Below are positions 857 through 30,700 of a stretch of DNA of 35,666 nt, piece after piece (position 1 is the stretch's first letter; each line of letters opens with the position of its first letter). The notes below the pieces were generated by a model. That model did no database searches. It was not told where the DNA came from and saw only the letters and a program-made list of their open reading frames with translations. The DNA lies in the NCBI RefSeq assembly GCF_027484545.1, contig NZ_JAIXST010000349.1:1-35666 (forward strand), in the 5' to 3' direction. The position numbers and the translations under genes are program-made. The stretch comes from Runella sp. (GTDB taxonomy: Bacteria > Bacteroidota > Bacteroidia > Cytophagales > Spirosomataceae).

Positions 857-880
857 CAGCACCATAATTGGCGCACTACC
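857..880. repeat. IS1-family terminal inverted repeat, right copy
   Basis: Bases 857-880 are the partner of 1-24. The last bases, read on the minus strand as GGTAG, complete the final codon of the interrupted tssC frame and give it a TAG stop. Confidence 0.9.
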
Positions 881-2234
881 TCAATTCCGAATCCCAATCG
901 CCTTTGGTACCTGTCATGTTGATGGCAAATACTTTGGCAGGAAAAAAGGGCTTCAAATCCATGTTAACAATGACGTGCGTAGGTTTTTCGGGGTGGCGTT
1001 TCACTTCCAGATTGCGATAATCTTCGATGATTTTGCCCGGTCCGCGAATCTCGGCGAGGAACTTGGAAATCTGCTTTTTGATGTCTTCCAACATCTTGTT
1101 ATCAATGTTTTCGAAGGTACGACGGTTCAGAAAATCCTGCATGATTTTGCCAATCCAGTCAAACACCCGAACCACACTATACGTCTGCAAACCTACGTTA
1201 TCGCCATCAAAAAGCGTTTTTGCCGACTGCGGCACCACCCGTCCCCACTCGTAAATGAGCGGAATTAAGCCTCGGTTCTCCAATTGAGCTACCTCGTTTT
1301 TGCGCATGGTGAACTTTGTTCCGCTCGCCATTTTGAGTTTTCCGTGGGCCAAACCTGCCGCCGGTTGGGCAATGCTGCCTCCCCAAAGCAAACCGGCCAA
1401 GGCCATCGACGGAGGAACAAAAAGGTGATCTTCTTCTCCAATATCGGTGTTGGCTTCACGGCCAACTACCCAGTTGGCAGGCATCATCACGTGCGATTTG
1501 TACGCATCCGAGCCTGTCAATTTATCTTTGTCAAAGGCCGCTTCCACATCTTCGGCACTGTCTAAGTGACGATAGTCGGTAAGTAACATTGCCTTGTTTT
1601 GATAGGCCAATTCAGCCCATTTATCCACGATGATATTTTTCTTTAACCAACCCGGTATCACCACCAGCGAATAGTTATTTGTTAAATCGAAGCGGTCGTA
1701 ATTATCCCGAAGTTCTTTGGCCAATTGCTCAAAAATCCCCGTTGGATTGCTGAATCCATCAATATCGGTTGTCATGTCGTTGCCGGCATCGAAAAGGGTC
1801 AGGTTTTTAACTTTTTCTTCGGCGGTATTTTCAAAAAACAACGCCAATGAACGATACGAGCGCTCCAGTTCTTCAGTCTGACTAAGGCAGTTGAGTAAAT
1901 TGGATTTGAGTGTTTCACCGGCCGAGGATGCTTTTTGTTCGGCATCGGCTACCATATCGGCTATATTATCGTGTGCTGAAAGTAAATCAGCTACGGCCTG
2001 AAGGCGTTTTTTAAGTTTTTTACGGTCGGCCTTGTTATCTTCTTCTTCCAAAAACATCGCTTTACGCGCCTTTTTGGTTGAATCCATATTTTCGGTGCCG
2101 TCCACAATGGTTTTAATAAACTCAAAACCACCGTATTTAGATAATTGTGGGACTATTTGAGTCAAAGGACGCGGTGCGGCCGCCTTCTCTTTGAAAAGTT
2201 CTTTCGATTGGGGTAGTTGTTCTTCTTGTGCCAT
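876..2234 (-). CDS. tssC: Type VI secretion contractile sheath large subunit (TssC-like), 3' end cut by IS
   Basis: The protein of 452 residues resembles the Bacteroidota (T6SSiii) TssC large sheath subunit, which with TssB builds the contractile tube around the Hcp tail. Support is the overall length, a central TssC-like block (DMTTDIDGFSNPTGIFEQL, then LVVIPGWLKKN, then VPPSMALAGLLWGGS), the C-terminal helical segment around RVFDWIGKIMQDFL, and adjacency to a TssB-sized gene and clpV. The ATG at 2234 is preferred over an upstream in-frame TTG. The last codon and TAG stop come from the inverted repeat of the IS1 element, so the native C-terminus is altered, probably by a few residues. The gap to tssB is 100 nt and the two are probably co-transcribed. 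Family assignment is by recognition only. Confidence 0.75.
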   Translation of the reverse strand: MAQEEQLPQSKELFKEKAAAPRPLTQIVPQLSKYGGFEFIKTIVDGTENMDSTKKARKAMFLEEEDNKADRKKLKKRLQAVADLLSAHDNIADMVADAEQKASSAGETLKSNLLNCLSQTEELERSYRSLALFFENTAEEKVKNLTLFDAGNDMTTDIDGFSNPTGIFEQLAKELRDNYDRFDLTNNYSLVVIPGWLKKNIIVDKWAELAYQNKAMLLTDYRHLDSAEDVEAAFDKDKLTGSDAYKSHVMMPANWVVGREANTDIGEEDHLFVPPSMALAGLLWGGSIAQPAAGLAHGKLKMASGTKFTMRKNEVAQLENRGLIPLIYEWGRVVPQSAKTLFDGDNVGLQTYSVVRVFDWIGKIMQDFLNRRTFENIDNKMLEDIKKQISKFLAEIRGPGKIIEDYRNLEVKRHPEKPTHVIVNMDLKPFFPAKVFAINMTGTKGDWDSELR

Positions 2235-2334
2235 AGCGGGTTTCAGTTGCAAAAGTTCGTCATTCGGTTAGGGGATGTAACCACACGGTACGCCGTTGCG
2301 ATAGAAATATAGGTTACATAGTTAAAGAGTTTGT

Positions 2335-2790
2335 TTATTCTTCGTCAATCGCGTCCAATTCGGCAATCATAGCCATGAGTGCTTCCAAAAAAGCCGCTTT
2401 TCCGGCGGGGTCAGCCAACAGTTTTTGAAATACTTTGTTGGTCATCAGGCGCTTGATCATGGTTTGAAAATCGTCTTCTTTACCTTTCAGTTCCTGCAAA
2501 AAGCCGCTTTGCTCAATCATCCCTTTCACCGTAAAAGCACTTACGCTCGTAAAATTCAGGGTTTCGTTCACTTCTGCTCCATCTTCAGTCGTATGAGTTA
2601 CATCCACTTGAGGTTGAAAATGATCAAACGCGTCCTGTAATTTTTGGATGCCTTCTACGGGCGCTTGGCTCATAGAATCAGCCGTAAACTTGCTGATGAT
2701 GGCGGTTTTGTTATCGTGCAAAAGTTTGATGGCTTCACTGGTGCCTTCGTCGATTACGACGCCGCCCAATTGGGGTTTTTCGATTGCCAT
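2335..2790 (-). CDS. tssB: Type VI secretion contractile sheath small subunit (TssB-like)
   Basis: 151 residues, right-sized for TssB. The N-terminus (MAIEKPQLGGVVIDEGTSEA) is followed by FTADSMSQAPVEG, a segment on acidic VDVTHTTEDGAEVNETLNF, and a helical C-terminus with many charged residues. It lies directly upstream of the TssC-like gene in the usual B-C order. TssB and TssC heterodimers form the sheath, which ClpV disassembles after contraction. The ATG at 2790 has an exact Bacteroidota -7 hexamer-like TACCTTTG about 40 nt upstream (2830-2837). The upstream region resembles that of the neighbouring CHAP gene (see regulatory features). The call rests mainly on context and size. Confidence 0.68.
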   Translation of the reverse strand: MAIEKPQLGGVVIDEGTSEAIKLLHDNKTAIISKFTADSMSQAPVEGIQKLQDAFDHFQPQVDVTHTTEDGAEVNETLNFTSVSAFTVKGMIEQSGFLQELKGKEDDFQTMIKRLMTNKVFQKLLADPAGKAAFLEALMAMIAELDAIDEE

Positions 2791-4469: not shown

Positions 4470-6974
4470 TTACTCTTTCACCCACTCAAACTCCCCATCT
4501 TCCCCCAATTTCAGGGTTATTTGCGAACCTTTGCCAATTTCGCCCGACACAATCATGCGCGAAAGCGGGCGGCGGATGCGGTTGCGAATTACACCCCGAA
4601 TGGGCCGCGCACCATACTTGGGTGTGAAGCCTTCCAATGCCAAAGCTTTACGGGCTTCGTCATCCAAGTGGAGTGTGATGCCTTGCTTTTCAAGTAGAGT
4701 AATGAGTGGCTTAAGCTGAATGTTGAAAATATTGACTACGGCGCTCTCCGTAATCGGACTGAAAGGGATAATTTCGGTCAAACGGCCCAAAAATTCGGGA
4801 CGGAAGTGCTTGGTCATCAAATCCAAGATATCGTTGGAGGCGGGGATTTTTCCCGCGCCAAACTGTGCCGCTATCCACTCCGAACCAATGTTTGAGGTGA
4901 AAAGTATAATGGCATTAGAGAAATCTCCCTCCCTCCCAAGTCGATCGTGGAGCGTTCCCTCGTCCAGTATTTGTAAGAACAAATCAAAGACCGAAGGGTG
5001 GGCTTTTTCGATTTCGTCAAACAATACAATGGCAAAGGGTTGCTGTTTGATTTTAGTCACCAGCAAGCCCCCTTCTTCGTAACCTACGTAGCCAGGAGGC
5101 GCGCCGTATAGCACAGCCGCAGAATGCTCTTCCTTAAACTCCGACATGTCAAAACGAATCAGGGCTTTTTCGTCGTTAAACAAAAAATCGGCCATCGTTT
5201 TAGCCAATTCGGTTTTCCCCGTACCCGTAGGCCCTGAAAAGAAAAACGAGCCAATCGGCTGTCCCGGGCGGCTCAAACCTGAGCGATTTTCTAAAATAGC
5301 ATCAGCAATGACTTTGGTCGCATGATCTTGACCGACCACGCGTTTTTTGAGGTGCTCGTCCAAAAGAAGCAATTTTTCCCGCTCTTTGGATTGAAGTTTC
5401 CCCAACGGAATTCCTGTTTTATGGGCTACTACGGCCGCTACATCGTGCTTTTCGACGGTTTCTTTTTTCTGTCCGCCCAATGTTTCGAGTTTTAGCAGTA
5501 AATCCGTCAGATAATCGGCCACGGCTTCGGGCAATTCCATCTGGGCAAGTTCTGATTCTTCTTCCAGCTGTCCCAATAAAATCGGACTCAACCGATGATG
5601 GAGTTGGCGTTCAAACCAGCGCAGTTCTTGACCAAACAAAATCGGATCTCCACTCCCGTGCAATTCACGTAGACTGAGGAGTTCGGTTCGCAAAAAATCT
5701 ATTTCCTGTTGGGTGGTTTCGCTCATCAACTTCATGGCGGCCATGGTACGGTCGATGAGGTCGATGGCGGCATCAGGCAAGCGGCGGTCTTTGATGTAAC
5801 GTCTTGCCAAACGGACAGTTTCGATAATAGTTCCATCGCCCACCTTGATTTGATGATGCTCCTCAAACAACGAAATCACCTTTCCAATCATCCGACTCGC
5901 GGTCGTTTCATCGGGCTCTTCTACTTTTACCAGTTCAAAACGTCGCGCAAAGGCTTCGTCGGGCTCCATAAATTTCCGAAACTCGTCGAGCGTAGTGGCG
6001 CCAATCACGGTCAACTCGCCACGGGCCAATTCGGGCTTAAGCAAATTGACCAGGCCCATCGCACCGCTTTGAGGGTCCATCAGGATGTGGATTTCGTCAA
6101 TAAAAAGCAGTGCCCGCTCGTATTGTTTTATTTCTGCAATGATATTTTTGAGGCGATCTTCGATTTCTCCTTTGTAAGAAGCACCCGCAATCAACGCGCC
6201 CATATCCAATTGGAACAAATAGGCATTTTGAAGGTGTCCCGGCACTTGTCCGGCCACAATCAACTGGGCTAATCCTTCCACTAAGGCCGTTTTTCCTACG
6301 CCCGGTTCACCCACAATAATTACGTTAGGTTTGGTGCGCCGCCCCAAGATTTCGACCGTCATACGGGTTTCCTTGTCGCGTCCGATAATGGGGTCCAGTT
6401 TTCCATCGCGGGCTACGGCGGTTTTATCCACACAATATTTAAACAAGGCTTTAGCGCCTGCATTTCCTCCGACTGAAGTAGCTGCCGATGTACCTTTGAC
6501 CGCACCGTTGGCAGGAGGGCTAACGGCAGTTTGTACGCCTGCTTCGGCCATTGCTTTTTCGAGCAATTCGGTTTCGGTCAGTGGAAACGATTTGAGTTGG
6601 TCTTTCTGAAATCCTACGCCCGGACGGGCAATGGCGGCCAGCACTGCCAAAGGCGACACTTCATCTTCTCCCAATTTCATCCTAATCACGTCCGATACTT
6701 CAAACACAGCCTGGGCCTGAGCATCACCGCGGGCTACCCCCTCAAGACGAGTGGATTTTGGGTATTTTTCGATGCGAATATCGGCCCAATCGCGGAGGTA
6801 ATGAATATCAATTCCCCAGACTGCCAGAACACTCGACAGACCTACATCATTGTTTAACAAGCCTTTAAGCAAATGCCCAGGCGAGAATGTAGCGTGCTGA
6901 TTTTCTTTTGCTACAGACTGCGCAATTTGAATGGCTTGTTTGAGATCACTACTGAAAGTTAATGTCGAGAGCAT
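4470..6974 (-). CDS. clpV: ClpV/TssH-type AAA+ ATPase
   Basis: 834 residues in the ClpB/ClpV family. It has a Clp N-domain (1-145), a first AAA+ module with Walker A GEPGVGKT (222-229), Walker B LFIDEIH (290-296) and sensor GATT (325-328), a shortened middle domain (~405-500), and a second module with GPTGTGKT (581-588), pore loop GYVG (628-631), LFDEIE (651-656) and sensor-2 GARPIR (788-793). ClpV unfolds contracted T6SS sheaths for reuse. The shortened middle domain and the nearby sheath genes argue for ClpV over a general ClpB disaggregase. The ATG at 6974 gives a normal N-domain; the 38 residues upstream in frame are not family-like. An ACCGTTTACTCAAT regulatory motif and a TAAGTTTG -7 element lie upstream. 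Confidence 0.85.
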   Translation of the reverse strand: MLSTLTFSSDLKQAIQIAQSVAKENQHATFSPGHLLKGLLNNDVGLSSVLAVWGIDIHYLRDWADIRIEKYPKSTRLEGVARGDAQAQAVFEVSDVIRMKLGEDEVSPLAVLAAIARPGVGFQKDQLKSFPLTETELLEKAMAEAGVQTAVSPPANGAVKGTSAATSVGGNAGAKALFKYCVDKTAVARDGKLDPIIGRDKETRMTVEILGRRTKPNVIIVGEPGVGKTALVEGLAQLIVAGQVPGHLQNAYLFQLDMGALIAGASYKGEIEDRLKNIIAEIKQYERALLFIDEIHILMDPQSGAMGLVNLLKPELARGELTVIGATTLDEFRKFMEPDEAFARRFELVKVEEPDETTASRMIGKVISLFEEHHQIKVGDGTIIETVRLARRYIKDRRLPDAAIDLIDRTMAAMKLMSETTQQEIDFLRTELLSLRELHGSGDPILFGQELRWFERQLHHRLSPILLGQLEEESELAQMELPEAVADYLTDLLLKLETLGGQKKETVEKHDVAAVVAHKTGIPLGKLQSKEREKLLLLDEHLKKRVVGQDHATKVIADAILENRSGLSRPGQPIGSFFFSGPTGTGKTELAKTMADFLFNDEKALIRFDMSEFKEEHSAAVLYGAPPGYVGYEEGGLLVTKIKQQPFAIVLFDEIEKAHPSVFDLFLQILDEGTLHDRLGREGDFSNAIILFTSNIGSEWIAAQFGAGKIPASNDILDLMTKHFRPEFLGRLTEIIPFSPITESAVVNIFNIQLKPLITLLEKQGITLHLDDEARKALALEGFTPKYGARPIRGVIRNRIRRPLSRMIVSGEIGKGSQITLKLGEDGEFEWVKE

Positions 6975-7001: not shown

Positions 7002-7051
7002 CAAACTTAGAAAAAGGCAACATGAATCACAAGAAGTATTGAGTAAACGGT
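7002..7051 (-). promoter_or_regulatory. clpV promoter with ACCGTT-type motif
   Basis: In gene direction ACCGTTTACTCAAT (7038-7051) is followed by an exact TAnnTTTG -7 element, TAAGTTTG (7002-7009), 27 nt before the ATG. This is the most divergent of the five ACCGTT motifs, and its A lies 77 nt before the start codon. Confidence 0.55.
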
Positions 7052-7686: not shown

Positions 7687-7765
7687 GATGCGTTCTGATT
7701 TTTAGTTAATTTTCTCAACTAAATTAAGGATAAAACAAACCTAAACAGCTACTAATCAGACCTGA

Positions 7766-7779
7766 ATTTACTAAACGGT
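7766..7779 (-). promoter_or_regulatory. ACCGTT-type motif upstream of metallopeptidase gene
   Basis: In gene direction the site reads ACCGTTTAGTAAAT. Its A lies 93 nt before the start codon. A TAGGTTTG -7 match (7736-7743) ends 44 nt after the motif start. Confidence 0.6.
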
Positions 7780-13740: not shown

Positions 13741-16700
13741 CTATTCCTTTACAATTCTAAACGATTGTTTCTTATCACCCTGAACCACTTCCAGCCAATA
13801 GTTTCCGGCGGGAAAATCACCCATCTCCCACTGATGCTGTAGATTATAAAAAGATTGGGTTTTGAGCAAACTTCCTTTTACGTCGTAAAGTCGCAATTGA
13901 GTCGTTTGACCCGCTTTTCCATTTTTGATTTGAATAGTGAGCCAATAGGAAGTCGGGTTGGGAAATACCGATACGACGGATTTGGCCAACGTATCTTCTT
14001 CCACTGCCACCACCCGTTTGAGCGTAATTCTCAAGTTTTGGGTTCCTCCCAAACTCCCTACACCACAAACCCCGCTGATGCCCTGAAAACTAAACGTACC
14101 GTCGTTGTCAAATCGGAACGTCAGGGTCGTATCACCAGCATTACGTACGTTACGGGTTCCTGCGCTGAAAGTGAGCGTAAAAGGCCCGCTTCCCTGTATC
14201 CGTACCCGAGCCGCCAAATTATCGCCCGTTTTTCGGGCTACAATGGAGGTGTCATTTCGAGGGCTTAGCATCTGAGCCGTAGCCCGTTGAAGAATCGAAA
14301 ATGCAGCGGTGCTCGACTTATTCACCGTTGCGGATGTTTCTACCAACAATCGGTAATTTGTCCCTGCGGCTGCCGAAGCAGGAATCGTAGCCCGAATAGG
14401 ACTTCGAGTACCACTGCCTAAGCTTGTACCTATTTTTTGGTTGTTGGCATCAATTAAAAATACGTTGAAGGTACCCACGCCGTTAGAAGGTATAATGGTA
14501 AAATTAACATCAACGCCTGTTCCGGGACAGGCTGATGCAGAGGTGGCAGACACGTTATCAATCCCCGTAACGGGTTGGGTTGTTACGCTAATGCTTACCG
14601 TTCCTTTGGCAGTACAGCCATTGGCAGTGATTGTTACCTCATAATTTCCGCTCATCGCCGCTGTCCCGTTGGCGATTGAGGGATTTTGTTGGGTGGAAGT
14701 ATAGCCGTTGGGGCCCGTCCAGGCGTAGGTATAGCCCGTTCCGCTTCCCGAAGTAAGTTGTATCGTTTCTCCAACAATATACGTGGATTTAGAAGACGCT
14801 GCATTGGGAACCGGAATCGAATTTACGGTTACTTTGACCGTATCACGGGCCGTTCCGCAGGTGCTGGTTCCCGTCACCACGTAGATGCCGGAAACGGGAG
14901 TGGTCAGTTGCGGCGAACGGGTTGTGTTCGTAAAACTCGGCCCACTCCAACTATACGTTGCAAACCCATCGGTCGCCGAAAGTGCCACGGCTACCCCGGC
15001 ACATACCGATAATGGTTTGGTACCGTTGGCTGTTGCAGCGATGGTTGGGGTGGAAGTGACGGTAAATACATCGCTATTGGCCACATTTGTTGCTGCCGGA
15101 TTACTGCTTTTTATTCGTACACGATAACTTCCGGTGGGTAAACTAACGGGGATGATGTACACAATCGGGCTCGTGGGCGAAGTAGCGACGTTTGCCAAAA
15201 CCACCGAAGTACCAGCTTGATTCATTACATCAACGCTGAAAACATTGGCGGCATTAAACGTTCCAGTGGTTGTAAAACTCATCCGTAACGTATCCTTCAA
15301 GCACAGTGAAGTACGATTCAGAGTAGGTTTGGAGATAGTCACCACTACTGGCGCTACCGTGACAGTAACGGAGGAAGTATCCGAACACCCGGTGGTGGCA
15401 TTCGTGCCTTTTACAGTATATTTCCCACTCATGGCAACCGTCGCATTGGGGCGAGTAGGATTTTGTTGGGTAGATGTATAAGAAACCGGGCCACTCCACT
15501 CATAAGTAGTTGCACCGGAAGATTGTAATTTGATGGTATCGCCTACGGAATATGTTGCCGCCGGAATAGCGCTTGCGCGGATAGTGGGTAAGGCATTGAC
15601 CGTAAAAACATCACTGATAGGTGATTTGTAAGGAAAAGTTACCGAGGAAGGTGCAGGCACGCCGTTGATTTGAATTTTATAACGTCCGACCGGTAAATCG
15701 CGAGGAATAGTGACATTCAACGGAGTAGTAGTGCCGGAGGGAGCCAACGTTCTGACAAGGGTTGTACCTGCTTCATTCAGGACAAGCGCCGAAAACGTGC
15801 TGGAAAACACCTGAGTCCGCCAAACGAAGTTAATTGGGACGCTGGCTCCGAGACAAACGTTGGCAGCTATTGTAGGTTTTTGGATGATTGCCGGCAGGTT
15901 TCCGTTAATGTCAAAGGTCTGAGCATATACATCTCCCCGGCATTGACCGGTGGCGTTACGTTCGTCTTCCCACATGGCCAAATACGGATTGACGGAACCC
16001 AAACTATACGACAATTTGAGGTTTCCACGACTTTTAGAATCGTTGACACCGCAAATTTCCCTGCCCGGATCTGCCCAACTGCGGCTCACCTGATAAGTAT
16101 TGGAAACGTTAATTAACTGCCCATAGATTTTGTTATTAAATATTCCGGTCATGAAATATTTTTTATTTCCTAAATAAACATCCTCAATCAGAAGTCCTGT
16201 TATGGAACTCCCTCCCGAATTGTATCCCCTTGTTATGACCTCCAACTCATTACTCAATGAAGTCACCCCGTCAAAAATCCGCATTACCTGCGCATTATCC
16301 GATTGGTTTAGGTACAAAAAACAGGTAAGCCCTGAAATTCCGCCCGCTACGTTCACATTATTTAGGGCGGAAGATTTAAAAATGTTGGTCACCCCAATCA
16401 ACGTTGCATTGCTATGACGAAAACGGTGCGCTCGTACATCCGTTCCTACCCCAACCTGACCTCCGTTGCGGGCATACACCACCATTTCGTCGGTGGCGGG
16501 CTGAACGATAGCATTCTGAATATGAATGATTTGCTCTATATCTGCGGCATTATCAATTCTTCCGGTATGGGTTCGGGTTAAAGTACTGCCGCTGAGGGTA
16601 TATCGTTTGACATGTAATTGGCGATTGTTGTCACTGTGAGCCACAAATACCACCACTCCGCTGCCCCAGGCAGCACCAAATACCCGAGGCTTAGACTGAT

Positions 16701-17364
16701 CTCCCGCTTCTACTTCAGAGACCACTTCGGTAGGAGCTGCGGTAGGACTGCTTAAATTAATCAGAGTCAATTTTATATCTGAAGTTCCTCCAGAAGTACG
16801 GTACGTAGAAACAACGGCCAATCGGCCTCCATTCGGCACGAAAGAGGCACTCCATTCCAAATCGCCGCCGGTATACAATGCTAATTGATGCCCAATGCCT
16901 GAGTTGGCCAAAATCTGAGGAGCACCGTCACTAATGTTAATGACTTGCTGATAAAGTTCGGCATTGGACGATTTCACTACTCGATACACTATAATTGCCT
17001 GATTAGACCCATCGGCTCGAAACAACCCAACACTTTTAATTCCGTCGGCACAATTTGGGTCACTCAAGCCATTTACCGAAAAGGCAAGTCGTCCGCGTTT
17101 TCCCGCCGCATTGATATATTGGGTATTCGCATTGGCATCATAACGTTGCACATACATGGCAGCGGCATTGCCTTCTCTTTCTACCCAAGCCATAATGAAC
17201 CCGCCTGTCCCATCGGGAGTTACTCCGTATAAGGTAGAATTGTAAGCAGTACTGGCATCGCTGGAAATTCGCGTATTTTCGGTCGTAATTTCACTCCACT
17301 GCCCCCAACTATACAGGTTGCTTCCTATCAACAACACAAAAAGTACCCATCTCTTAATAGTCAT
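13741..17364 (-). CDS. Large T9SS-exported surface protein with Ig/PKD-like repeats
   Basis: 1207 residues. A signal peptide (MTIKRWVLFVLLIGSNLYSWGQ) precedes a beta-rich N-terminal region (to ~480) resembling a propeller, then several Ig/PKD-like repeats marked by YxWSGPxxYTSTxxNP-type and YTWTGPNGYTSTQQNPS-type turns (~550-1050). From ~1133 lies a T9SS type A C-terminal sorting domain (VFPNPTS... ending SFRIVKE). The protein is therefore secreted through the PorSS and attached at the surface. No enzyme motif is seen, so adhesion or structure is likely. It starts at ATG 17364, 91 nt downstream of an ACCGTTCAATAAAA motif. Confidence 0.85.
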   Translation of the reverse strand: MTIKRWVLFVLLIGSNLYSWGQWSEITTENTRISSDASTAYNSTLYGVTPDGTGGFIMAWVEREGNAAAMYVQRYDANANTQYINAAGKRGRLAFSVNGLSDPNCADGIKSVGLFRADGSNQAIIVYRVVKSSNAELYQQVINISDGAPQILANSGIGHQLALYTGGDLEWSASFVPNGGRLAVVSTYRTSGGTSDIKLTLINLSSPTAAPTEVVSEVEAGDQSKPRVFGAAWGSGVVVFVAHSDNNRQLHVKRYTLSGSTLTRTHTGRIDNAADIEQIIHIQNAIVQPATDEMVVYARNGGQVGVGTDVRAHRFRHSNATLIGVTNIFKSSALNNVNVAGGISGLTCFLYLNQSDNAQVMRIFDGVTSLSNELEVITRGYNSGGSSITGLLIEDVYLGNKKYFMTGIFNNKIYGQLINVSNTYQVSRSWADPGREICGVNDSKSRGNLKLSYSLGSVNPYLAMWEDERNATGQCRGDVYAQTFDINGNLPAIIQKPTIAANVCLGASVPINFVWRTQVFSSTFSALVLNEAGTTLVRTLAPSGTTTPLNVTIPRDLPVGRYKIQINGVPAPSSVTFPYKSPISDVFTVNALPTIRASAIPAATYSVGDTIKLQSSGATTYEWSGPVSYTSTQQNPTRPNATVAMSGKYTVKGTNATTGCSDTSSVTVTVAPVVVTISKPTLNRTSLCLKDTLRMSFTTTGTFNAANVFSVDVMNQAGTSVVLANVATSPTSPIVYIIPVSLPTGSYRVRIKSSNPAATNVANSDVFTVTSTPTIAATANGTKPLSVCAGVAVALSATDGFATYSWSGPSFTNTTRSPQLTTPVSGIYVVTGTSTCGTARDTVKVTVNSIPVPNAASSKSTYIVGETIQLTSGSGTGYTYAWTGPNGYTSTQQNPSIANGTAAMSGNYEVTITANGCTAKGTVSISVTTQPVTGIDNVSATSASACPGTGVDVNFTIIPSNGVGTFNVFLIDANNQKIGTSLGSGTRSPIRATIPASAAAGTNYRLLVETSATVNKSSTAAFSILQRATAQMLSPRNDTSIVARKTGDNLAARVRIQGSGPFTLTFSAGTRNVRNAGDTTLTFRFDNDGTFSFQGISGVCGVGSLGGTQNLRITLKRVVAVEEDTLAKSVVSVFPNPTSYWLTIQIKNGKAGQTTQLRLYDVKGSLLKTQSFYNLQHQWEMGDFPAGNYWLEVVQGDKKQSFRIVKE

Positions 17365-17441
17365 ACAACTTATATTTCAAGTAGTGGTATTTGATGCAAT
17401 TTACTGAAAATCAAAGGGACAATAAGAATTAAAGTTCGTGT

Positions 17442-17455
17442 TTTTATTGAACGGT
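17442..17455 (-). promoter_or_regulatory. ACCGTT-type motif upstream of T9SS protein
   Basis: In gene direction ACCGTTCAATAAAA, identical over 14 bases to the site upstream of the kinase. Its A lies 91 nt before the start codon, and a -7-like TCCCTTTG ends 44 nt after the motif start. Confidence 0.65.
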
Positions 17456-17474: not shown

Positions 17475-18707
17475 TTATCCACCGGGGATTTTTTTCTGAA
17501 GCGTGTCCTGATTTTTCTTTTTACTAAAGGATAATGTATTGGCAGTTACCCCATTTTGATCGGGCTTAGAAAGAGAATCCGCAGAAGCAATCTCCGTCTT
17601 TTTGGGTTTAGAAGGCAGACGCTTTGAATTGACGGAAGCAACCGTTGCTTTTTTTATTTCGGGGTCTGGTTTTTGGGTAATCGGTACAGTATCAGCCTTT
17701 TTTTCGGGAGGAGGTTTTGAATTGACAGGAGTAGGTTTTTGGGCAATTTTTTGTGGCTTTAAAAACCAATAGGCTCCAAATGCCAACCCTATCAACAAAA
17801 CAGACACGCCCAAGTACCAAAACCCCTGTCCCAGCTTGGCAGAAGGGGGTGTTTCGACCACAAGCTTATTTTCAACGGGAACATCAAAGGTAGATTCCAT
17901 CTCGTTAGAGGCCATTACCTGAATAGGTTCGACCCATTCTTTGGCAATAAGCGGCTCCCCTACCTCCGCGATTTGCACCAAATAACCCGAATAATTGTCC
18001 CGCGTATTGCCTTCACACAGGTTAAGAATGAGTTGGAGTTTTTTAGCGTCGTTTTGTTCGCTATCCAGAATCTGACACAAGGCTTCATCAGTTAAATTTT
18101 CGAGCACCCCATCGGTACACTGAAAAAAATAATCGCCCGGTTGTACATCCGTCAGTTGATTGATTTCAATGTCTGTTTCTTTATGCGAACCCTGAATCGC
18201 TCGGGTAATTACATTTCGTTCGGGGTGGTTTTTCGCCTGTTGCTCTGTGATTAGTCCCGTTTTGAGCAGGTAATTGACTTTGGAATGGTCTTCACTTTTA
18301 AAAACAATGGTACCCTGTCGGATTTGGTAAATGCGACTGTCGCCGATATGAGCAGCAGTGACGTCCTTTTCTCCAACCCCGACAAAAGTGAGGGTAGTAG
18401 CCATACCTCGCAACAGATGTTGTTGCTGTAACATGGCGTCGAACTGTTCGAGTACATGAGCAAACGCCGCTTTAATTACCGTTTCCGAATAGACCGAAGA
18501 AGGGTGTTTGGTAAAATAATCCGCAAACCCCGTCACGGCAATATGACTGGCCAGTTCTCCTTTTTGAGCCCCGCCAACGCCGTCGCAAACGATAAAAAAG
18601 CGATGTTGAGCGGTAGCCTCTCCCGCAGGCGGATAAATGGAATCCTCATTGTTTTCGCGTTGACCCTGAAACGTAAAACCCAAAGGGGGATGAATAGTGA
18701 TTGCCAT
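17475..18707 (-). CDS. PP2C-type Ser/Thr phosphatase with one transmembrane segment
   Basis: 410 residues. The N-terminal PP2C domain (1-~240) has the metal-binding and active-site motifs RENNEDS (17-23), CDGVGG (41-46), GMATTLT, HIGDSRIY and CTDGVLENLTD. A transmembrane helix follows (about 296-316, WYLGVSVLLIGLAFGAYWFL), then a Pro/Lys/Ser-rich tail likely in the periplasm. PP2C enzymes reverse Ser/Thr phosphorylation, and in classic T6SS the PppA phosphatase opposes the PpkA kinase and Fha. It is the last gene of a five-gene operon, 16 nt after the FHA protein; the kinase is divergent at 22418. Confidence 0.88.
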   Translation of the reverse strand: MAITIHPPLGFTFQGQRENNEDSIYPPAGEATAQHRFFIVCDGVGGAQKGELASHIAVTGFADYFTKHPSSVYSETVIKAAFAHVLEQFDAMLQQQHLLRGMATTLTFVGVGEKDVTAAHIGDSRIYQIRQGTIVFKSEDHSKVNYLLKTGLITEQQAKNHPERNVITRAIQGSHKETDIEINQLTDVQPGDYFFQCTDGVLENLTDEALCQILDSEQNDAKKLQLILNLCEGNTRDNYSGYLVQIAEVGEPLIAKEWVEPIQVMASNEMESTFDVPVENKLVVETPPSAKLGQGFWYLGVSVLLIGLAFGAYWFLKPQKIAQKPTPVNSKPPPEKKADTVPITQKPDPEIKKATVASVNSKRLPSKPKKTEIASADSLSKPDQNGVTANTLSFSKKKNQDTLQKKIPGG

Positions 18708-18723
18708 AATTAGTTCAAATTAC

Positions 18724-19476
18724 TTACCAAATGATGGTCTTGGAATAATCCGTACTCTGCACGTTGCGGGCGGCATCGCGAGCGTTACTTGCGGCTTTGG
18801 TAGTTTGCAACACCACCTTGGTACGCCCCATTTGAATAGTATCTCCGTCTTCGAGGTAAATGATATCTTCGGGTTCGAGTTTGATTTTTCGCATCGGGTC
18901 ATTGGTGCCCATCACAAAGGTTCCGTTTCGACTTCCGGCTTCTGAAATCAAGTACTGAAACTGTCCGAATTTATCACGGGTCACTTCCACAATCGCGTGG
19001 CGGCGACTCATCATTGCGTCTTCGCTTTCAATCAAAATATCAGCCGTAGGTACCGAACTTTTACGACCGATAACGTTAGGGCCAATACGCAAAGGATAGG
19101 TTTGAGCAGTTGCATTTTCGTCGTGTACCACAATAAATCCAACGGCTCCCGTCTGCTGAAAAATAGCATCCTGTTGTTTGGCAGCATCTGGCGAAGGCGG
19201 TTTTAGAAAAGGATTGCTTCCTCCGTTGGGCTCCGTTGTCCGAAAAAAATCAGCAGGCGGCGGCGGAATAGGCGGCATAAAATCAGAGGGCAAATAGCTA
19301 CCAGTTGGAGCGGGGGGCGGCATAGCCCCGGCTTCCTGAATCACTACATAAATGCACTTATCGGGGCGCTGTTGCACACAATTGAGCTTCGCAGGACTGC
19401 CTGGCAGCAATTTTACCGGCGATTGCCCTTTTTTAGTGTGTTGGCACTCTTTGCAACGGAAAACGTATTCAAACAT
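18724..19476 (-). CDS. Zinc ribbon-FHA domain protein
   Basis: 250 residues. The N-terminus carries four cysteines (C8, C11, C33, C41), probably a zinc ribbon. It is followed by a proline-rich linker (52-75) and an FHA domain (about 127-226) with its phosphothreonine-binding signatures: IGR (136-138), SRRH (157-160) and SRNGTF (182-187). FHA domains bind phosphothreonine peptides, so this is a likely reader of the adjacent kinase's signal. There is no membrane segment, suggesting a cytoplasmic adaptor. The gap to the PP2C gene is 16 nt. Confidence 0.82.
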   Translation of the reverse strand: MFEYVFRCKECQHTKKGQSPVKLLPGSPAKLNCVQQRPDKCIYVVIQEAGAMPPPAPTGSYLPSDFMPPIPPPPADFFRTTEPNGGSNPFLKPPSPDAAKQQDAIFQQTGAVGFIVVHDENATAQTYPLRIGPNVIGRKSSVPTADILIESEDAMMSRRHAIVEVTRDKFGQFQYLISEAGSRNGTFVMGTNDPMRKIKLEPEDIIYLEDGDTIQMGRTKVVLQTTKAASNARDAARNVQSTDYSKTIIW

Positions 19477-21407: not shown

Positions 21408-22088
21408 TTATGATTTTATCCAAATCGCACTGCATTGTACGCAACGCTTTTGTTTTTTGTAATATTCGTAAGGGAACCCATACAAAGAGCGGCTGCATTT
21501 AGGGCACACGTAGTGAATTTTAAAATCGTTTTCGATTTCAGTAACCAAGTTTTGGGTTTTAGAAGATTTATTTTTTGTAAATAATTCTCGGGCAGCCATT
21601 CCTATACTGCTTCCGAGCATTGCCCCCCCACCCAGCCCTGCTGCCGTTCCAACCACCACTCCTGCAATAGGCCCCAAAAGGAGCGCGGGAGCTACAATCA
21701 GACAAACAGTCATGAAAGAATCCATCCCATTGTTACTCCGAGCCTGTTTTAAAAGCAGTTGGTAATTGTCCCATACACCCTGCAGTTTTGCAAACTCTAC
21801 TGAGTAGTCGTTGGGATTTTCCCGAGTGGTGCGAGCCGCGTCAAATATCTGTTGTAAATTCAGCCGCTGGTCTGCCAATAGAATAATATCATTATGACTG
21901 ATGCTTTTGCGTTTGATGCGAAATCCATTCACAAAGGTGCCATTGGTCGAACCTAAATCTTCGAGTACAATCGTATTTTTAGCGGGATCAATGACGGCCT
22001 TCGCATGTTGGGCCGATACCCCCCGTGAGTTGAAAACGACCTGTCCGGGGACGGGTTCAGTTCCTCGGCCAATCAAGATTACTTGCAT
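21408..22088 (-). CDS. FHA domain-membrane hairpin-zinc ribbon protein
   Basis: 226 residues. The N-terminal FHA domain (about 5-80) shows SAQHA (25-29) and LGSTNGTFVNG (45-55). Two glycine-rich hydrophobic helices follow (about 124-166) that look like a membrane hairpin, then a C-terminal zinc ribbon (C195xxC198 ... C216xxC219). It leads the five-gene operon and is divergent to the kinase gene. The FHA domain would read phosphothreonine marks, and the hairpin would tether it to the inner membrane. It mirrors the zinc ribbon-FHA protein at 18724, with the domain order reversed. Confidence 0.82.
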   Translation of the reverse strand: MQVILIGRGTEPVPGQVVFNSRGVSAQHAKAVIDPAKNTIVLEDLGSTNGTFVNGFRIKRKSISHNDIILLADQRLNLQQIFDAARTTRENPNDYSVEFAKLQGVWDNYQLLLKQARSNNGMDSFMTVCLIVAPALLLGPIAGVVVGTAAGLGGGAMLGSSIGMAARELFTKNKSSKTQNLVTEIENDFKIHYVCPKCSRSLYGFPYEYYKKQKRCVQCSAIWIKS

Positions 22089-22417
22089 TGAGTTGTAGTG
22101 TTACCCCTTGTTTGACAATTATTTACCTAAGCGATGGCTAATTTACAAAATAAGAATATGCGGAGATCATTAATTTTAGTGAACGGTCAAAGAATCTTTA
22201 AACAAAGCACTTACCCGACCTGCTATTTATTTTACGGTACAAAAATTATCTTCCGTGCAATCTGCTCACCTTCCCGCAAAAGCAACTTTGCAGACTTTCG
22301 CCGTATGAGCAAATGATTTCATTTACCGTTCAATAAAAATATAACTCCCGTTGACGGTTTTCAACCAAAACCATCGTATTTTGGCTAAACAATTGCCACA
22401 TTGCCGTTTGATAAATC
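22089..22417. promoter_or_regulatory. Divergent promoter region between FHA operon and kinase
   Basis: 329 nt with no gene. It carries two ACCGTT-type motifs, one for each divergent gene. For the operon (minus) ACCGTTCACTAAAA is at 22174-22187, 99 nt before its start. For the kinase (plus) ACCGTTCAATAAAA is at 22325-22338, 93 nt before its start. TATTTTG (22377-22383) is a possible kinase -7 element. A second short CCGTTGACGG lies at 22348-22357. Confidence 0.65.
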
Positions 22418-23953
22418 ATGACTTACGACGATTTTAAGAAACGTTACCGCTACGACCCTACCAACGATATTCTTGGTGAGGGGGCTTTTGGCAAAGTATT
22501 TCGAGCTACCGATACCGAAAGCGGCTCTACTGTAGCCATTAAAGTCGCGCCGGTTAATATGGCCAACGAAAACCACTCGCTCAAACACGAGTTTGAAACC
22601 GTCGGCAAAGTAGACCCGCACCTTCATATTGCCCTTTATGACGAATGCTATCGCTTTTCGGTGGAATGGGCGGGCTTGCACGATTTTGCCATTTTGGAGT
22701 ATTATCCAATGGGCAGCCTGGATAAAATCATCAAAAACCCCGCACTGACCGATTCCGACAAACACGACTTGGCATTGGGTATTTTGGAAGGACTCCGTCA
22801 TTTGCACAACACAGGCGCACAGGGAGTGGTGCATCGCGACTTAAAGCCCCGCAACGTGCTTATTCAGAAATGGCGCGGCAAGTACGTGGCCAAAATCACC
22901 GACTTTGGCCTAAGCAAGTTTTCTGATTCGATTTCCAACAGCGTGATTTCGCAGAGTTTTAAAGGAGGAACACTCAATTACGCTTCTCCCGAGCAAATCC
23001 GAGGAGAACAGATACGCCGCAATACCGATTTATGGTCGTTTGGGGTCATTTTGCACGAATTATTGACGGGTGAAGTTCCCTATAAAATTGACGACAGTTC
23101 CGAAAGTACACTCCGACAGGTATACGAGCGAATGAATCAGCAATCGTTGCCCGAGTCTTTTAAAACAATCAAAGAGCCTTACGCAACAGTGATCCAAAAG
23201 TGCCTGATAGTCAACCCTAATCTGCGCTACCGCAGTGCGGAAGAAGTATTGCAGGACATTCGAAAAGCACCCACTCTTCCTGCACCGCCACTACCTCCGG
23301 TCGTTGAGCCTAAAAAAGCGTTAAAAGATCAAACTGAATTTTTTGACGAAAGCCCTTTTGCCTCGTTGAGCAATTCGGTTTTTGGGTCAGGTTCCCAGTC
23401 CAACTCAACTCCCTCGGCAAATGCCGATAAATCTACTCCCAAAGATAATTTGGAAGGAAGCGGTTATGTAAAATCCGATCCGAAGCCCAAAGAACCAAAG
23501 AAAGAGAAGCCTAAAAAAGACCTTACGATGATGATTGTGGGGGCGGTAGCCATTTTGGGAATTATTACCTTTGCCGTCATTTATTTTGGAGGCAACTCTA
23601 AAAAAGCAGAGGCCGTTTCTTCCGATTCAACCCTTACCAACAGCATTAAAACACCCGTAGCAGTAGATACAACGGCCTTAGGCCAACAGGCAGACTCCTT
23701 GTTCAATCTCCCTAACTATCCTGAATATGCGCGGGTGGTTTTAAAAATAAACGAAGCTTACCCTGCTAACAGCGGCGGTCACAGCAAAAATGAGGCACTT
23801 CAAAAATTGAAAAAAGGGGCCGCCGGCTGGGAAAAATACAGTCTTTCTGAACCTGACAACCGAAGTTTTCTGGAAGCTTTCAGCAACGCCATCTTAATTC
23901 TTGATCCTTACGATATAAAAGGGTTAGAATTACAGAAAAAACTAAATAAGTAA
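22418..23953 (+). CDS. Transmembrane Ser/Thr protein kinase
   Basis: 511 residues. The N-terminal kinase domain (about 1-270) has the glycine loop GEGAFGKV (20-27), Lys42 in VAIKV, the catalytic loop HRDLKPRN (139-146), the DFG (162-164) and SPE (190-192) motifs, and the structural DLWSFGVILHELLTGEVPY (204-222). A Pro/Lys-rich linker leads to a transmembrane helix (about 370-390, MMIVGAVAILGIITFAVIYF) and a ~120-residue extracytoplasmic tail. It is an active-looking Hanks-type kinase whose partners are likely the FHA and PP2C proteins of the divergent operon, analogous to PpkA/PppA/Fha in T6SS. The target is not evident. Confidence 0.9.
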   Translation: MTYDDFKKRYRYDPTNDILGEGAFGKVFRATDTESGSTVAIKVAPVNMANENHSLKHEFETVGKVDPHLHIALYDECYRFSVEWAGLHDFAILEYYPMGSLDKIIKNPALTDSDKHDLALGILEGLRHLHNTGAQGVVHRDLKPRNVLIQKWRGKYVAKITDFGLSKFSDSISNSVISQSFKGGTLNYASPEQIRGEQIRRNTDLWSFGVILHELLTGEVPYKIDDSSESTLRQVYERMNQQSLPESFKTIKEPYATVIQKCLIVNPNLRYRSAEEVLQDIRKAPTLPAPPLPPVVEPKKALKDQTEFFDESPFASLSNSVFGSGSQSNSTPSANADKSTPKDNLEGSGYVKSDPKPKEPKKEKPKKDLTMMIVGAVAILGIITFAVIYFGGNSKKAEAVSSDSTLTNSIKTPVAVDTTALGQQADSLFNLPNYPEYARVVLKINEAYPANSGGHSKNEALQKLKKGAAGWEKYSLSEPDNRSFLEAFSNAILILDPYDIKGLELQKKLNK

Positions 23954-27777: not shown

Positions 27778-30699
27778 TTAGCGGGTCGTTTTCAAATCAA
27801 TGCCTCCGTCATAGTCTGCAATGAGGTCTCCGTATTTCTCCTGCATCTTTGAGAAATTTCCCGTTTTTTTCCAACTTAATGCAGACTGAAATTTCCCTTT
27901 GTAGTTTTCAATTTGCTCTTCCTTTACGGGTTTGCCATCTATTAGGTAAATGATTTTAGCATCTTTAGGAAAACCAGCCCAAAATGGCTTATTATTCACA
28001 AAACCTCGAACAACAATCAGCATCACCTCATTACCCTCATCGTTTCTAAGAAAACGCTTGCTCAATCGTTCATTAAACATATTCAGCACTTTACGTACAT
28101 TTTCTACGGCTACCATTCGTTCTTCTTCCGTCTTAAAAAAGCAATCATCAATCGTCTTTATATCGACCACTCCATCCACTGCCCGTGCTCCGTATTTTGA
28201 AATGGCCTTTGGGTCATTGGGTTTTGCTACAAAAGTCATCCCAAACTTACTTGGATCAACGCGCGTCAGGACACTTGCCGGAAATTCTTCACCGTTTATC
28301 AAAACCAACGGGTTTTTACCCAAGTCATTGGCCGGCAAAAAAGTGCGTATGGTATCAGCAAACTGATACCATACTACATGAAGTGGCTGTTGCCGCTTTA
28401 TAGTTGGTGCAGGGAGTTTTTTAAAATCAAACTCTCTTCTTTCCATCCACACAATTTTTTCATTTTTAGCATCAATTTTGTGCTCTTTTACAAAAGCAGC
28501 ATATCTATTGTACTCAGGTTCAAGTATATCTACTTTTTTTATGTGAGAAGGACGTAATGACTTGACAACCTCCTCTATCACCTTCACTCCATCCAAATAA
28601 TAAATCGGAGATTTTCCTGCAGCCACATCTAAGCTAAATGTTGTGATCCTTTCGCCTCTTCGGGTAAAAATTAACCTATCTTTTATTCCTTCCGTTTTTG
28701 TCTTTATTTGAACTCGTTTGAAGAAAATATCATTCGAGTACATTTCTTTCACAACCTTGCTAAACTCCACTGAATTTTCATTCGTAATTACTTCGGTTTG
28801 GGCCGTTTTTTGGGGCTTAACTTCGGCTTTTTCGGGAACAAAAGGCTTTAAATGACCTTTTTTCTTCATTGCATCTGCCCACTCTGATGTGGTTTCAATT
28901 TGTACTTTACCTGTATTTTTATTAGCTCGGATAGTAATAGGCTCATCAAACCTATGCCTTTCACCCCCAAAATAATCATAGTGCCTTAAATCATTCAAGA
29001 CAACCGGTTGATTTATGGCGTTATTTTTATCATTTGTTAGTTTTAAATCGAAAGATAAAAGTTGTTGGTCAAATGTAGAATACTTTTCGTTTTTCATCAT
29101 TAAATCAAAACCTGCTTTTTTGAAATAAGAACTCACTCTTTGAAAAGTTTCCAAGTTTACTTTATCAGGATAAACAAAGTATTCAATTTGGTCTTGACTG
29201 AGTTTTAAAGTACATGACTCTCCTATAAATAAATCAATCAAATGCTCTTTTGAAGTAGTGGAAGATTGGGTGATGAATAATTTTTCATCTCCATAACACA
29301 AGGCAATGTGCGCCTTTCGGGTTGGGCTTTTGATTTGTAAATCCAAATAAGCACCCTGTTTCCCCAACTCTCTTGCCTCTGTCATATCAATAATTTCAGG
29401 GGTAGACAGTTGATTTGTTCTAAGATTTTTAACAGCCAAACCGATTTTAGACAATTTCCCTGCCACATCCACAGCTTGTTCCGTAATTACTATTTCCAGC
29501 TTATATGGTTTTGCAAGGATTCCATTTATAATTTTTATATCTTTGATATTGAGCGAATTAGGATTTACTAAATAATAAATAGCTCCACTTCGCAGTATTA
29601 CCAAATCATTCAGTGTAAGGTTATAATCACTAAAATATTTAGGCTTTGCCTTCTTTTGTTGTTCAAAATACCACCATACATGCTTATTATGTACTCTCAA
29701 TGGATACACCTTCACCGGCACATCTTTACCGGTTTTAGCTTTCGTAACACTTTCTTTGGCCACACTTTCTTTATACACAAACACTTCTTTACGCGGCGCA
29801 AAGGCCAAAACTCCGGCCAGTATCAGCGGCAGTAGAAAGACATATACTAATTTTTTCATGGCTATTGTTGGTTTTTGAAATAAGAAATGAATTCGATTTG
29901 TAACGGGGTGTTTTCCAAACGAATGAATCAATGAATGCGAAGAGTGTGTTGCCAATTTCAAAATCAAATGGGCGTAGGTTTTGGCGTCAAGTTGGGCCGC
30001 CAAGCGCTCATCTACCTCATATTCATGGATTTCGACCAGCGATTTTTTGCAGAGATACACAACGGGATTAAACCATAAAATCACTTTACAGAACTCAACC
30101 AACAGCACATCTACCGAATGAAACAGTTGGGCGTGCGTTCGCTCATGGAGCAAAACCTGTTGCGTTTCCTCTTCGGTCAATGCCTGTGAATTCAAAAAAA
30201 TAAGTCCAAAAAAGGAAGCAGCTGTAAAGGATTCCGACACTTCTACCCACTCTTTGTTGGCGTCATTTTGACGTTTTCTGCTCAAAAGGGCTATTTTCCA
30301 AAGTCTTCGTGCTAATACCATCAGAGCTATGAAAAGCCCAATACCGTAAACCCCTATACTCCACTCATCCCATGTCAGCGCAGGTGTATTTTCAAAAGAA
30401 GAGAGGATATTGGCTGAATCGCTTACAATTGCCTCAGGTTCAGCAGCCTTGGTATTGATTTTTTCTTCAAGACCCTCATTTTGCGGCAGAGAAATAGGTT
30501 CCGCTACTACAGGCTGTATCTCTACGATTCGCTTTTGCTCTAATTCTACCAACGGAATTATAAAACTGAGCAACAAGGCCAACAATAAGTAAATGCGGTT
30601 CAAACGGTGAAAGGTAAACCGTCGAAACAAAAAATAGTACAGCCCATAAAATAGTCCCAAACAGGCCGAAACTTTGAGCAAATACACGATCAGAAACAT
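27778..30699 (-). CDS. M56 (BlaR1-type) sensor metallopeptidase with TonB-plug-like repeats
   Basis: 973 residues from the ATG at 30699. The N-terminal BlaR1-like part has several transmembrane helices (about 1-25, 35-52, 115-135 and 284-300) and the zinc motif HERTH (185-189) with a later HEYEVDERLAA acidic segment. The long C-terminal region lacks a penicillin-binding domain and instead has segments like TonB plug domains (YLDGVKVIEEVVKSL, ISKYGARAVDGVVDIKT, YLIDGKPVKEEQIEN). In the M56/BlaI pathway a signal activates the protease, which cleaves the repressor. It follows the BlaI-like gene with a one-base gap. Confidence 0.87.
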   Translation of the reverse strand: MFLIVYLLKVSACLGLFYGLYYFLFRRFTFHRLNRIYLLLALLLSFIIPLVELEQKRIVEIQPVVAEPISLPQNEGLEEKINTKAAEPEAIVSDSANILSSFENTPALTWDEWSIGVYGIGLFIALMVLARRLWKIALLSRKRQNDANKEWVEVSESFTAASFFGLIFLNSQALTEEETQQVLLHERTHAQLFHSVDVLLVEFCKVILWFNPVVYLCKKSLVEIHEYEVDERLAAQLDAKTYAHLILKLATHSSHSLIHSFGKHPVTNRIHFLFQKPTIAMKKLVYVFLLPLILAGVLAFAPRKEVFVYKESVAKESVTKAKTGKDVPVKVYPLRVHNKHVWWYFEQQKKAKPKYFSDYNLTLNDLVILRSGAIYYLVNPNSLNIKDIKIINGILAKPYKLEIVITEQAVDVAGKLSKIGLAVKNLRTNQLSTPEIIDMTEARELGKQGAYLDLQIKSPTRKAHIALCYGDEKLFITQSSTTSKEHLIDLFIGESCTLKLSQDQIEYFVYPDKVNLETFQRVSSYFKKAGFDLMMKNEKYSTFDQQLLSFDLKLTNDKNNAINQPVVLNDLRHYDYFGGERHRFDEPITIRANKNTGKVQIETTSEWADAMKKKGHLKPFVPEKAEVKPQKTAQTEVITNENSVEFSKVVKEMYSNDIFFKRVQIKTKTEGIKDRLIFTRRGERITTFSLDVAAGKSPIYYLDGVKVIEEVVKSLRPSHIKKVDILEPEYNRYAAFVKEHKIDAKNEKIVWMERREFDFKKLPAPTIKRQQPLHVVWYQFADTIRTFLPANDLGKNPLVLINGEEFPASVLTRVDPSKFGMTFVAKPNDPKAISKYGARAVDGVVDIKTIDDCFFKTEEERMVAVENVRKVLNMFNERLSKRFLRNDEGNEVMLIVVRGFVNNKPFWAGFPKDAKIIYLIDGKPVKEEQIENYKGKFQSALSWKKTGNFSKMQEKYGDLIADYDGGIDLKTTR

Positions 30700-30700
30700 G

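What the first reader, a model, noticed from the sequence alone, without database searches (positions are those of the whole stretch)
22174..22338. Five co-oriented ACCGTTYAnTmAAw motifs link kinase, FHA operon, T9SS protein, metallopeptidase and clpV
Seen: ACCGTTCAATAAAA (22325-22338, 17442-17455), ACCGTTCACTAAAA (22174-22187), ACCGTTTAGTAAAT (7766-7779) and ACCGTTTACTCAAT (7038-7051). Each lies upstream of a gene on the sense strand, with its A 93, 91, 99, 93 and 77 nt before the start codon. In three cases a TAnnTTTG-like -7 element ends 42-44 nt after the motif start, and for clpV 50 nt. Consistent orientation and spacing argue for a binding site of an activator or alternative sigma factor. 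Inference: one regulon covers a phosphorylation module, a surface protein and a contractile system. The regulator is not in the window.
Basis: partly seen in the sequence, partly recalled or inferred. Interest (0 to 1): 0.78.

Follow-up and report, generated by a model that had tools for sequence, protein, structure and literature searches.

The report
Shared activator site drives secretion-system genes
A short DNA motif sits in front of the main control points of a bacterial weapon (a type VI secretion system) in Runella and looks like the landing site of one activator protein, possibly of the AraC type, that would switch the machine and its phosphorylation controls on together.

Summary
All five motifs are real (0.03 expected). 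The window is a type VI secretion (T6SS) contig of Runella. Orthologous promoters keep the motif: FHA gene 7 of 7 genomes, kinase 6 of 6, clpV 4 of 4. The T9SS-protein site is partly conserved; the metallopeptidase-like gene has no ortholog. In a relative, clpV heads an operon-like run of T6SS genes. Runella genomes lacking this FHA gene have the motif too, so it is broader than T6SS. Over 60 non-orthologous promoters the sigma-A -7 box lies about 42, 52 or 63 nt after the motif start (period 10.4 bp, p<5e-5; 39 in-gene copies show nothing). That fits an activator on a fixed helix face, not an alternative sigma factor. Candidate regulators are two DUF6597-AraC proteins whose own promoters carry the motif (AraC-1 8 of 8, AraC-2 9 of 9); a blind search on AraC-2 promoters of other genera returns TACCgtTnAcTAAA. 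Against this: a genus without AraC-2 has phased sites, and none of 22 AraC promoters checked there (of 44) carries the motif. Site well supported; regulator open.

The parts
22174..22187 (-). motif ACCGTTCACTAAAA, 99 nt before FHA gene 21408-22088; heads the FHA-...-FHA-PP2C gene run
   Evidence: conserved in 7 of 7 Runella genomes
22325..22338 (+). motif ACCGTTCAATAAAA, 93 nt before the Ser/Thr kinase gene 22418-23953
   Evidence: conserved in 6 of 6 genomes, also where other DNA separates FHA and kinase
7038..7051 (-). motif ACCGTTTACTCAAT, 77 nt before the conserved clpV start at 6974
   Evidence: identical 14-mer in 4 of 4 genomes, 76-122 nt upstream
17442..17455 (-). motif ACCGTTCAATAAAA, 91 nt before the T9SS-sorted protein gene 13741-17364
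   Evidence: at 161-162 nt in G119 (one of its two copies) and G086, not found in G063, G031, G050
7766..7779 (-). motif ACCGTTTAGTAAAT, 93 nt before gene 7096-7686 (HESVH, metallopeptidase-like by eye)
   Evidence: gene has no tblastn match in the relatives' fetched clusters
22138..22145 (-). proposed -7 box TAAATTAG of the FHA promoter, offset 42
   Evidence: kept in the ortholog alignment
22377..22384 (+). proposed -7 box TATTTTGG of the kinase promoter, offset 52
7002..7009 (-). proposed -7 box TAAGTTTG of the clpV promoter, offset 42
   Evidence: the same box in the relatives' sequences
17396..17403 (-). proposed -7 box TAAATTGC of the T9SS-protein promoter, offset 52 (TAnnTTGY type)
   Evidence: below the threshold used; TAnnTTGY type described in PMC9723704 (passage)
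7719..7726 (-). in-phase -7 candidate TAATTTAG of gene 7096-7686, offset 53; the rival TAGGTTTG at 7736-7743 (offset 36) is closer to consensus but out of phase
21408..22088 (-). FHA-domain protein
   Evidence: Pfam FHA
17475..18707 (-). PP2C phosphatase
   Evidence: Pfam PP2C_2
18724..19476 (-). second FHA-domain protein
   Evidence: Pfam FHA
22418..23953 (+). Ser/Thr protein kinase
   Evidence: Pfam Pkinase
4470..6974 (-). clpV (ClpB/ClpV-type ATPase; clpV by its place in a T6SS cluster)
   Evidence: ClpB and ClpV1 models both match below their cut-offs; start chosen by homology
876..2252 (-). tssC sheath gene
   Evidence: Pfam TssC
2335..2790 (-). small gene before tssC, tssB by position
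   Evidence: no Pfam or NCBIfam match; 91-96% identical in 3 relatives at the same place

Best explanation
The motif, TnACCGTTnRnTMAAW, is the binding site of a transcription activator. Bound at about -47, -57 or -68, always on the same face of the helix, it recruits RNA polymerase to sigma-A promoters (shown: conservation and phasing; inferred: binding and activation). In Runella it couples the T6SS structural genes (clpV promoter) with the kinase gene and the FHA/PP2C gene run, so that the machine and its threonine-phosphorylation-type switch appear together. The most likely regulator is a DUF6597-AraC protein (AraC-1 or AraC-2) that also activates its own gene. Its two helix-turn-helix units would read ACC(GT)T and TAAA one turn apart. 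That last step is inference, at about 0.4 on its own.
For: Exact sites far above chance and clustered in this contig. Conserved at orthologous promoters: FHA 7 of 7, kinase 6 of 6 and clpV 4 of 4. -7 box offsets 41-42, 51-52, 62-63: 33 of 66 boxes against 6.1 expected, period 10.4 bp, p<5e-5; 39 in-gene copies show 2 of 14, p 0.37. The phasing is seen separately in Runella and in G036 of another genus, and weakly in G065 (5 of 18 against 1.7, p 0.016). AraC-1 promoters 8 of 8 with at most one mismatch; AraC-2 promoters in Runella 9 of 9 with at most two. Gibbs search on 19 of 22 AraC-2 promoters outside Runella gives TACCgtTnAcTAAA, score 173 against 125-132 in 14 shuffled sets. In its 19 aligned sites ACC is kept in 14, TAA in 14, GTT in 3 (counted). 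In G103, a Runella without AraC-2, 2 of the 9 sites looked at (of 19) are intergenic, against 39 of 63 in G000 plus G111 (one-sided Fisher p 0.03).
Against: No expression or binding data. G036 has phased sites but no close AraC-2 ortholog (best 30% identity), and none of 22 of its 44 HTH_18 genes, those whose promoters lay in the fetched loci, has the motif with fewer than two mismatches. AraC-1 has no close ortholog in G086, which keeps the FHA and kinase sites. 6 of 29 AraC-2 promoters have no match better than 4 mismatches. In G042 and G018, which have AraC-2, intergenic copies are not phased (1 of 5 boxes), so the family-wide link of AraC-2 and motif counts (616 against 263 control in 29 genomes with it, 819 against 828 in 72 without) rests partly on copies that do not look like promoter sites, and it is not corrected for descent. 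g21 genomes without AraC-2 show 3 of 8 boxes in phase (p 0.024). LytTR and NarL-type regulator genes also carry the motif.
Confidence: 0.68

Rival explanations
1. The regulator is a LytTR-domain protein; ACCGTTnR is its half-site.
For: LytTR genes are downstream of the motif in G111 and G095 (orthologs; Pfam run on the G111 one) and in G063. LytTR proteins are common in this phylum (recalled), so one could also serve G036.
Against: LytTR proteins of the kind described in PMC6193735 use two 9-bp direct repeats, mostly 12 and sometimes 11 or 13 bp apart (passages). The flanks show no clear second repeat: 1 to 3 of 60 at each offset of 20-23 nt up or down, background 1.4. In the AraC-2 promoter sites of other genera GTT, the LytTR core, is kept in 3 of 19 while ACC and TAA are kept in 14 of 19.
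Confidence: 0.2
2. A NarL/FixJ-type response regulator or another global activator of Spirosomaceae binds the site, and the AraC genes are only conserved targets.
For: NarL-type genes lie downstream of the motif in G063 and twice in G036 (Pfam run on the G063 one), the only downstream family shared by Runella and G036 among the sites fetched; a HisKA_3 sensor kinase lies downstream in G000. Phased sites exist without AraC-2. It would explain both genera.
Against: These NarL genes were joined only by a BLAST cut-off of 1e-8 and the sites are not shown to be conserved. The NarL family is large (recalled), so a few hits are expected.
Confidence: 0.3
3. The motif is the -35 element of an alternative (ECF) sigma factor.
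For: Fixed orientation and position upstream of genes.
Against: The distance to the -7 box varies by whole helical turns, which a two-part sigma promoter does not allow, and the -7 boxes are of the sigma-A type (PMC9723704, passages).
Confidence: 0.04
4. Chance or general composition of intergenic DNA.
For: About two fifths of the genome-wide matches lie inside genes (13 of 33 in G000 and 11 of 30 in G111), and the reversed control is not rare (19 against 33).
Against: Ortholog conservation, phasing and clustering in this contig.
Confidence: 0.03

Closest known systems
AraC/XylS activator boxes (MarA/SoxS type; recalled)
   Same: asymmetric site of about 15 bp with two conserved parts one helical turn apart; activation from upstream of the -35 region; own gene among the targets
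   Different: sequence differs; no paper in the library mentions DUF6597; spacing classes span three turns here
LytTR direct repeats (AgrA, HdrR; PMC6193735 and PMC4227749, passages)
   Same: the ACCGTTnR core resembles the recalled half-site; site lies upstream of the promoter
   Different: single site; no clear repeat 12 bp away; a TAAA part is conserved
Class I activators with helical phasing, such as CRP at -61.5, -71.5, -82.5 (recalled)
   Same: active positions spaced by one helical turn
   Different: site is not a palindrome and is centred about -47, -57, -68
Transcriptional control of T6SS by an AraC protein: AggR and T6SS-3 of enteroaggregative E. coli (PMC10482370, passages)
   Same: an AraC-type activator turns on a T6SS
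   Different: Bacteroidota T6SS; several promoters share one short site; candidate regulator lies outside the cluster and is unproven
Threonine phosphorylation pathway PpkA-Fha-PppA (PMC10482370, passages)
   Same: kinase, FHA and PP2C phosphatase genes lie in the T6SS cluster
   Different: here they share a motif with the structural genes; phosphorylation itself not tested

Membership tests
binding site of a class I-like activator | conserved in orthologous promoters beyond the flanks | tested here: met
   FHA 7 of 7, kinase 6 of 6, clpV 4 of 4
binding site of a class I-like activator | fixed face of the helix relative to the core promoter | tested here: met
   period 10.4 bp, p<5e-5, no signal at 39 in-gene copies
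binding site of a class I-like activator | promoter activity depends on it | not testable with these tools
   needs reporter or RNA data
AraC/XylS box | asymmetric, two-part site one turn apart | tested here: met
   blind search gives TACCgtTnAcTAAA; that the two parts are read by two HTH units is inference
AraC/XylS box | site at the promoter of an AraC gene | tested here: met
   AraC-1 8 of 8, AraC-2 9 of 9 in Runella
AraC/XylS box | candidate AraC present wherever phased sites occur | tested here: not met
   G036 has no close AraC-2 ortholog; 0 of 22 AraC promoters examined there, of 44 genes, carry the motif with fewer than two mismatches
LytTR site | half-site core | tested here: met
   ACCGTTnR fits the recalled consensus at its first 8 positions; the ninth does not always fit
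LytTR site | second direct repeat about 21 bp away | tested here: not met
   1 to 3 of 60 sites at each offset of 20-23 nt on either side, background 1.4
alternative sigma promoter | fixed spacing between the two elements | tested here: not met
   three spacing classes
T6SS locus (Bacteroidota type) | TssC, ClpV, TssD, VgrG, TssF, TssG, TssN | tested here: met
   window: TssC and a ClpB/ClpV-type ATPase; orthologous G063 cluster: PAAR, TssD, VgrG-type hub and OB domains, gp25, TssF, TssG, TssN. The remaining genes were not looked for in G000

The most novel reading that the evidence does not exclude
A so far undescribed activator regulon of Spirosomaceae: DUF6597-AraC proteins, self-activating, read a two-part TnACC(GT)TnRnTAAA site and switch on a Bacteroidota T6SS together with its kinase-FHA-phosphatase control module, besides some tens of other genes.
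Probability: 0.38. Interest if true: 0.62.

Novelty: new member of a known kind. Interest (0 to 1): 0.5.

Why it matters
How T6SS genes are switched on in Bacteroidota seems little described: the word stem 'Bacteroid' does not occur in the main text of the review PMC10482370, and a search for Runella with type VI secretion listed one paper, on bacterial cell death (listing only). A defined site with a clear spacing rule, in named species, turns the question into a short reporter experiment and gives a short list of candidate regulators.

Tried and rejected
Alternative sigma factor: rejected because spacing varies by helical turns. LytTR: put behind because no clear repeat was found. Palindromic operator: a weak dyad in the 14-mer was considered by eye and not pursued. 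AraC-2 as sole regulator family-wide: weakened by G036, by G042/G018 where intergenic copies are not phased, and by g21 genomes without AraC-2 that still show 3 of 8 boxes in phase (p 0.024, two of the three from sites before the same gene in two genomes). Relaxed motif at FHA and kinase genes of five other-genus genomes: nothing better than 3 mismatches in 10 of 10 promoters, so the T6SS part is a Runella feature in this sample. Motif upstream (300 nt) of 16 other window genes: none with at most 2 mismatches in G000; in relatives a one-mismatch copy lies 21-22 nt before the g19493 ortholog in three genomes, and scattered two-mismatch copies elsewhere. Weaker copies also lie near the five sites themselves, such as ACCGTTAAGTAAGA 40 bp upstream of the 7096 site and a one-mismatch copy 15 nt before the kinase start; I did not work out whether they matter.

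Samples and dropped rows: of motif matches, those examined in detail were G000 33 of 33, G111 30 of 38 (loci cap), G095 28 of 40, G063 12 of 29 (plus 3 in its T6SS cluster), G036 26 of 29, G065 14 of 23, G103 9 of 19 (the first listed). For G095, G063, G036 and G065 I chose places by eye, favouring A/T-rich forms, which biases the intergenic share but should not create phasing. The 60-site set was made from 123 sites: it keeps intergenic sites with a start within 300 nt (77), drops sites over 60% identical to an earlier one, and allows three sites (L013, L145, L154) flagged as inside an ORF that I judged to be promoters. The blind search dropped three of 22 promoters (two near-duplicates and one broken gene). 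One search listed 30 AraC genes of G036, but a recount showed that for 8 of them, long proteins, the promoter lay outside the fetched DNA, so 22 count.

Full report
What was checked. The five 14-mers are present exactly as stated and are the only five exact matches in the window (0.03 expected). Genome-wide there are 20 exact matches against 8 for the reversed pattern. With the broader form ACCGTTBRNTMAAW there are 33 against 19, 5 of them in this contig where 0.17 would be expected.

What the window is. The window is one whole contig of a 7.1-Mb genome. Its genes include tssC, a ClpB/ClpV-type ATPase, a Ser/Thr kinase, two FHA proteins and a PP2C phosphatase, so it is a T6SS cluster; the contig ends in an IS1-type transposase gene. 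In G063 the clpV gene is followed on the same strand, with gaps of at most about 153 bp, by genes up to position 60603 of the fetched region that include TssC (by orthology), PAAR, TssD, VgrG, gp25, TssF, TssG and TssN. So the clpV motif probably heads the structural operon; co-transcription is inferred from spacing only.

Conservation. The FHA promoter keeps the motif in 7 of 7 genomes, with changes only at positions 8 and 9. The kinase promoter keeps it in 6 of 6 and clpV in 4 of 4 (the other fetched regions did not reach clpV). In G063, G031 and G050 the DNA between FHA and kinase is different and longer, yet the kinase gene still has ACCGTTGGATAAAA 86 nt upstream. The T9SS-protein site is found at 161-162 nt in G119 (one of two copies) and G086 and not in G063, G031 and G050. 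The 7096-7686 gene (HESVH) has no match there.

Not T6SS-specific. Runella genomes without the FHA gene have as many copies: G111 41 against 19 control, G095 40 against 10, G075 36 against 14. That they lack the whole T6SS was not tested. Downstream genes in G000 and G111 include glutamate dehydrogenase-like, NUDIX-like, AraC, sensor kinase and glycosyltransferase-like genes (Pfam only for the six proteins, the rest read from sequence by eye).

Spacing. In 60 non-orthologous sites from five genomes, -7-like boxes (TAnn plus at least three of TTTG) cluster at offsets 41-42, 51-52 and 63 after the motif start. 33 of 66 boxes fall in six chosen offsets where 6.1 are expected, the best period is 10.4 bp, and none of 20,000 shifted sets reached the observed values. 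The offsets were chosen after seeing the pooled data; the period test over 9.5-12 bp does not depend on that choice. G036, of another genus, shows it alone (12 of 18 against 1.7; period test p 0.0025), and G065 as a later replicate (5 of 18 against 1.7, p 0.016). The 39 copies inside genes show nothing (2 of 14, p 0.37). By PMC9723704 (passages) the sigma-A -7 box TAnnTTTG spans -12 to -5, which puts the motif start at about -54, -64 or -75.

Regulator. Six downstream genes found are AraC-type (Pfam run on two: DUF6597 plus HTH_18). Following orthologs, AraC-1 has the motif 80-82 nt upstream in 8 of 8 Runella genomes with at most one mismatch, although the proteins are only 48-59% identical to the G000 one. 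AraC-2 has it 75-81 nt upstream in 9 of 9, two of them with two mismatches. A third group has it in 2 of 4 genomes, and of 18 further AraC paralogs one has it with at most one mismatch. A blind Gibbs search on 19 AraC-2 promoters of other genera returned TACCgtTnAcTAAA (score 173 against 125-132 in 14 shuffled sets); part of this score may reflect shared descent of the promoters. The parts kept best, ACC and TAA, are about one helical turn apart, as two HTH units of an AraC protein would need (inference). The recognition regions of AraC-1 and AraC-2 look alike (RQFER, mostly DQSH or DQNH) but with exceptions, and one motif-bearing group has the DYQH form common in paralogs without the motif (by eye), so this does not decide the matter.

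Results against. G036 has no close AraC-2 ortholog, yet its sites are phased, and none of the 22 AraC promoters I could check there (of 44 genes) has the motif with fewer than two mismatches. G042 and G018 have AraC-2 but 11 intergenic copies examined show 1 of 5 boxes in phase. The correlation over 101 genomes is therefore weak evidence. g21 genomes without AraC-2 show slight phasing. LytTR and NarL-type genes also lie behind the motif. I therefore rate the site as well supported and the regulator as open.

Known context. Threonine phosphorylation by PpkA, Fha and PppA controls T6SS assembly in several Pseudomonadota, and the AraC protein AggR controls one E. coli T6SS (PMC10482370, passages). 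I found no paper on this motif: searches (ACCGTT with LytTR; Runella with type VI secretion; DUF6597; Bacteroides T6SS with AraC) listed nothing recognisable on it by title and abstract start; only open-licence PMC papers were searched.

Noticed in passing
14-739: IS1-type transposase gene at the contig end directly after tssC; the contig breaks there, and the remaining T6SS genes were not looked for elsewhere in G000.
   Followed up: no
27778-31060: BlaI/BlaR1-like repressor and M56 sensor pair beside an M14 carboxypeptidase gene.
   Followed up: no
7096-7686 and 2912-3394: Small genes inside the T6SS cluster, one with HESVH, one papain/NlpC-like by eye; the relatives' cluster has a PAAR-papain-fold protein followed by an Imm35 protein. 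Candidate effectors.
   Followed up: no
L205-L206 (G063 C1:332000-360000), L204, L207-L213: Arrays of AraC paralogs of the DUF6597 type in Runella, seven within about 20 kb in G063, only some with the motif.
   Followed up: partly
L001, L093, L127, L148: Motif 254-288 nt upstream of a glutamate-dehydrogenase-like gene (by eye) in G000, G111, G095 and G063.
   Followed up: no
L071, L099, L130: Motif 68 nt upstream of a NUDIX-like gene (by eye) in three Runella genomes; -7 box at offset 41 in L071 and, by hand count, in L099.
   Followed up: no
L298, L308: In two g21 genomes the motif precedes an ECF-sigma-like gene (by eye) by 108 nt with a -7-like box at offset 51.
   Followed up: no
G036, G065 (L154-L173, L312-L331): Another genus uses the same phased site mostly for other genes than Runella and has no close AraC-2 ortholog.
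   Followed up: partly
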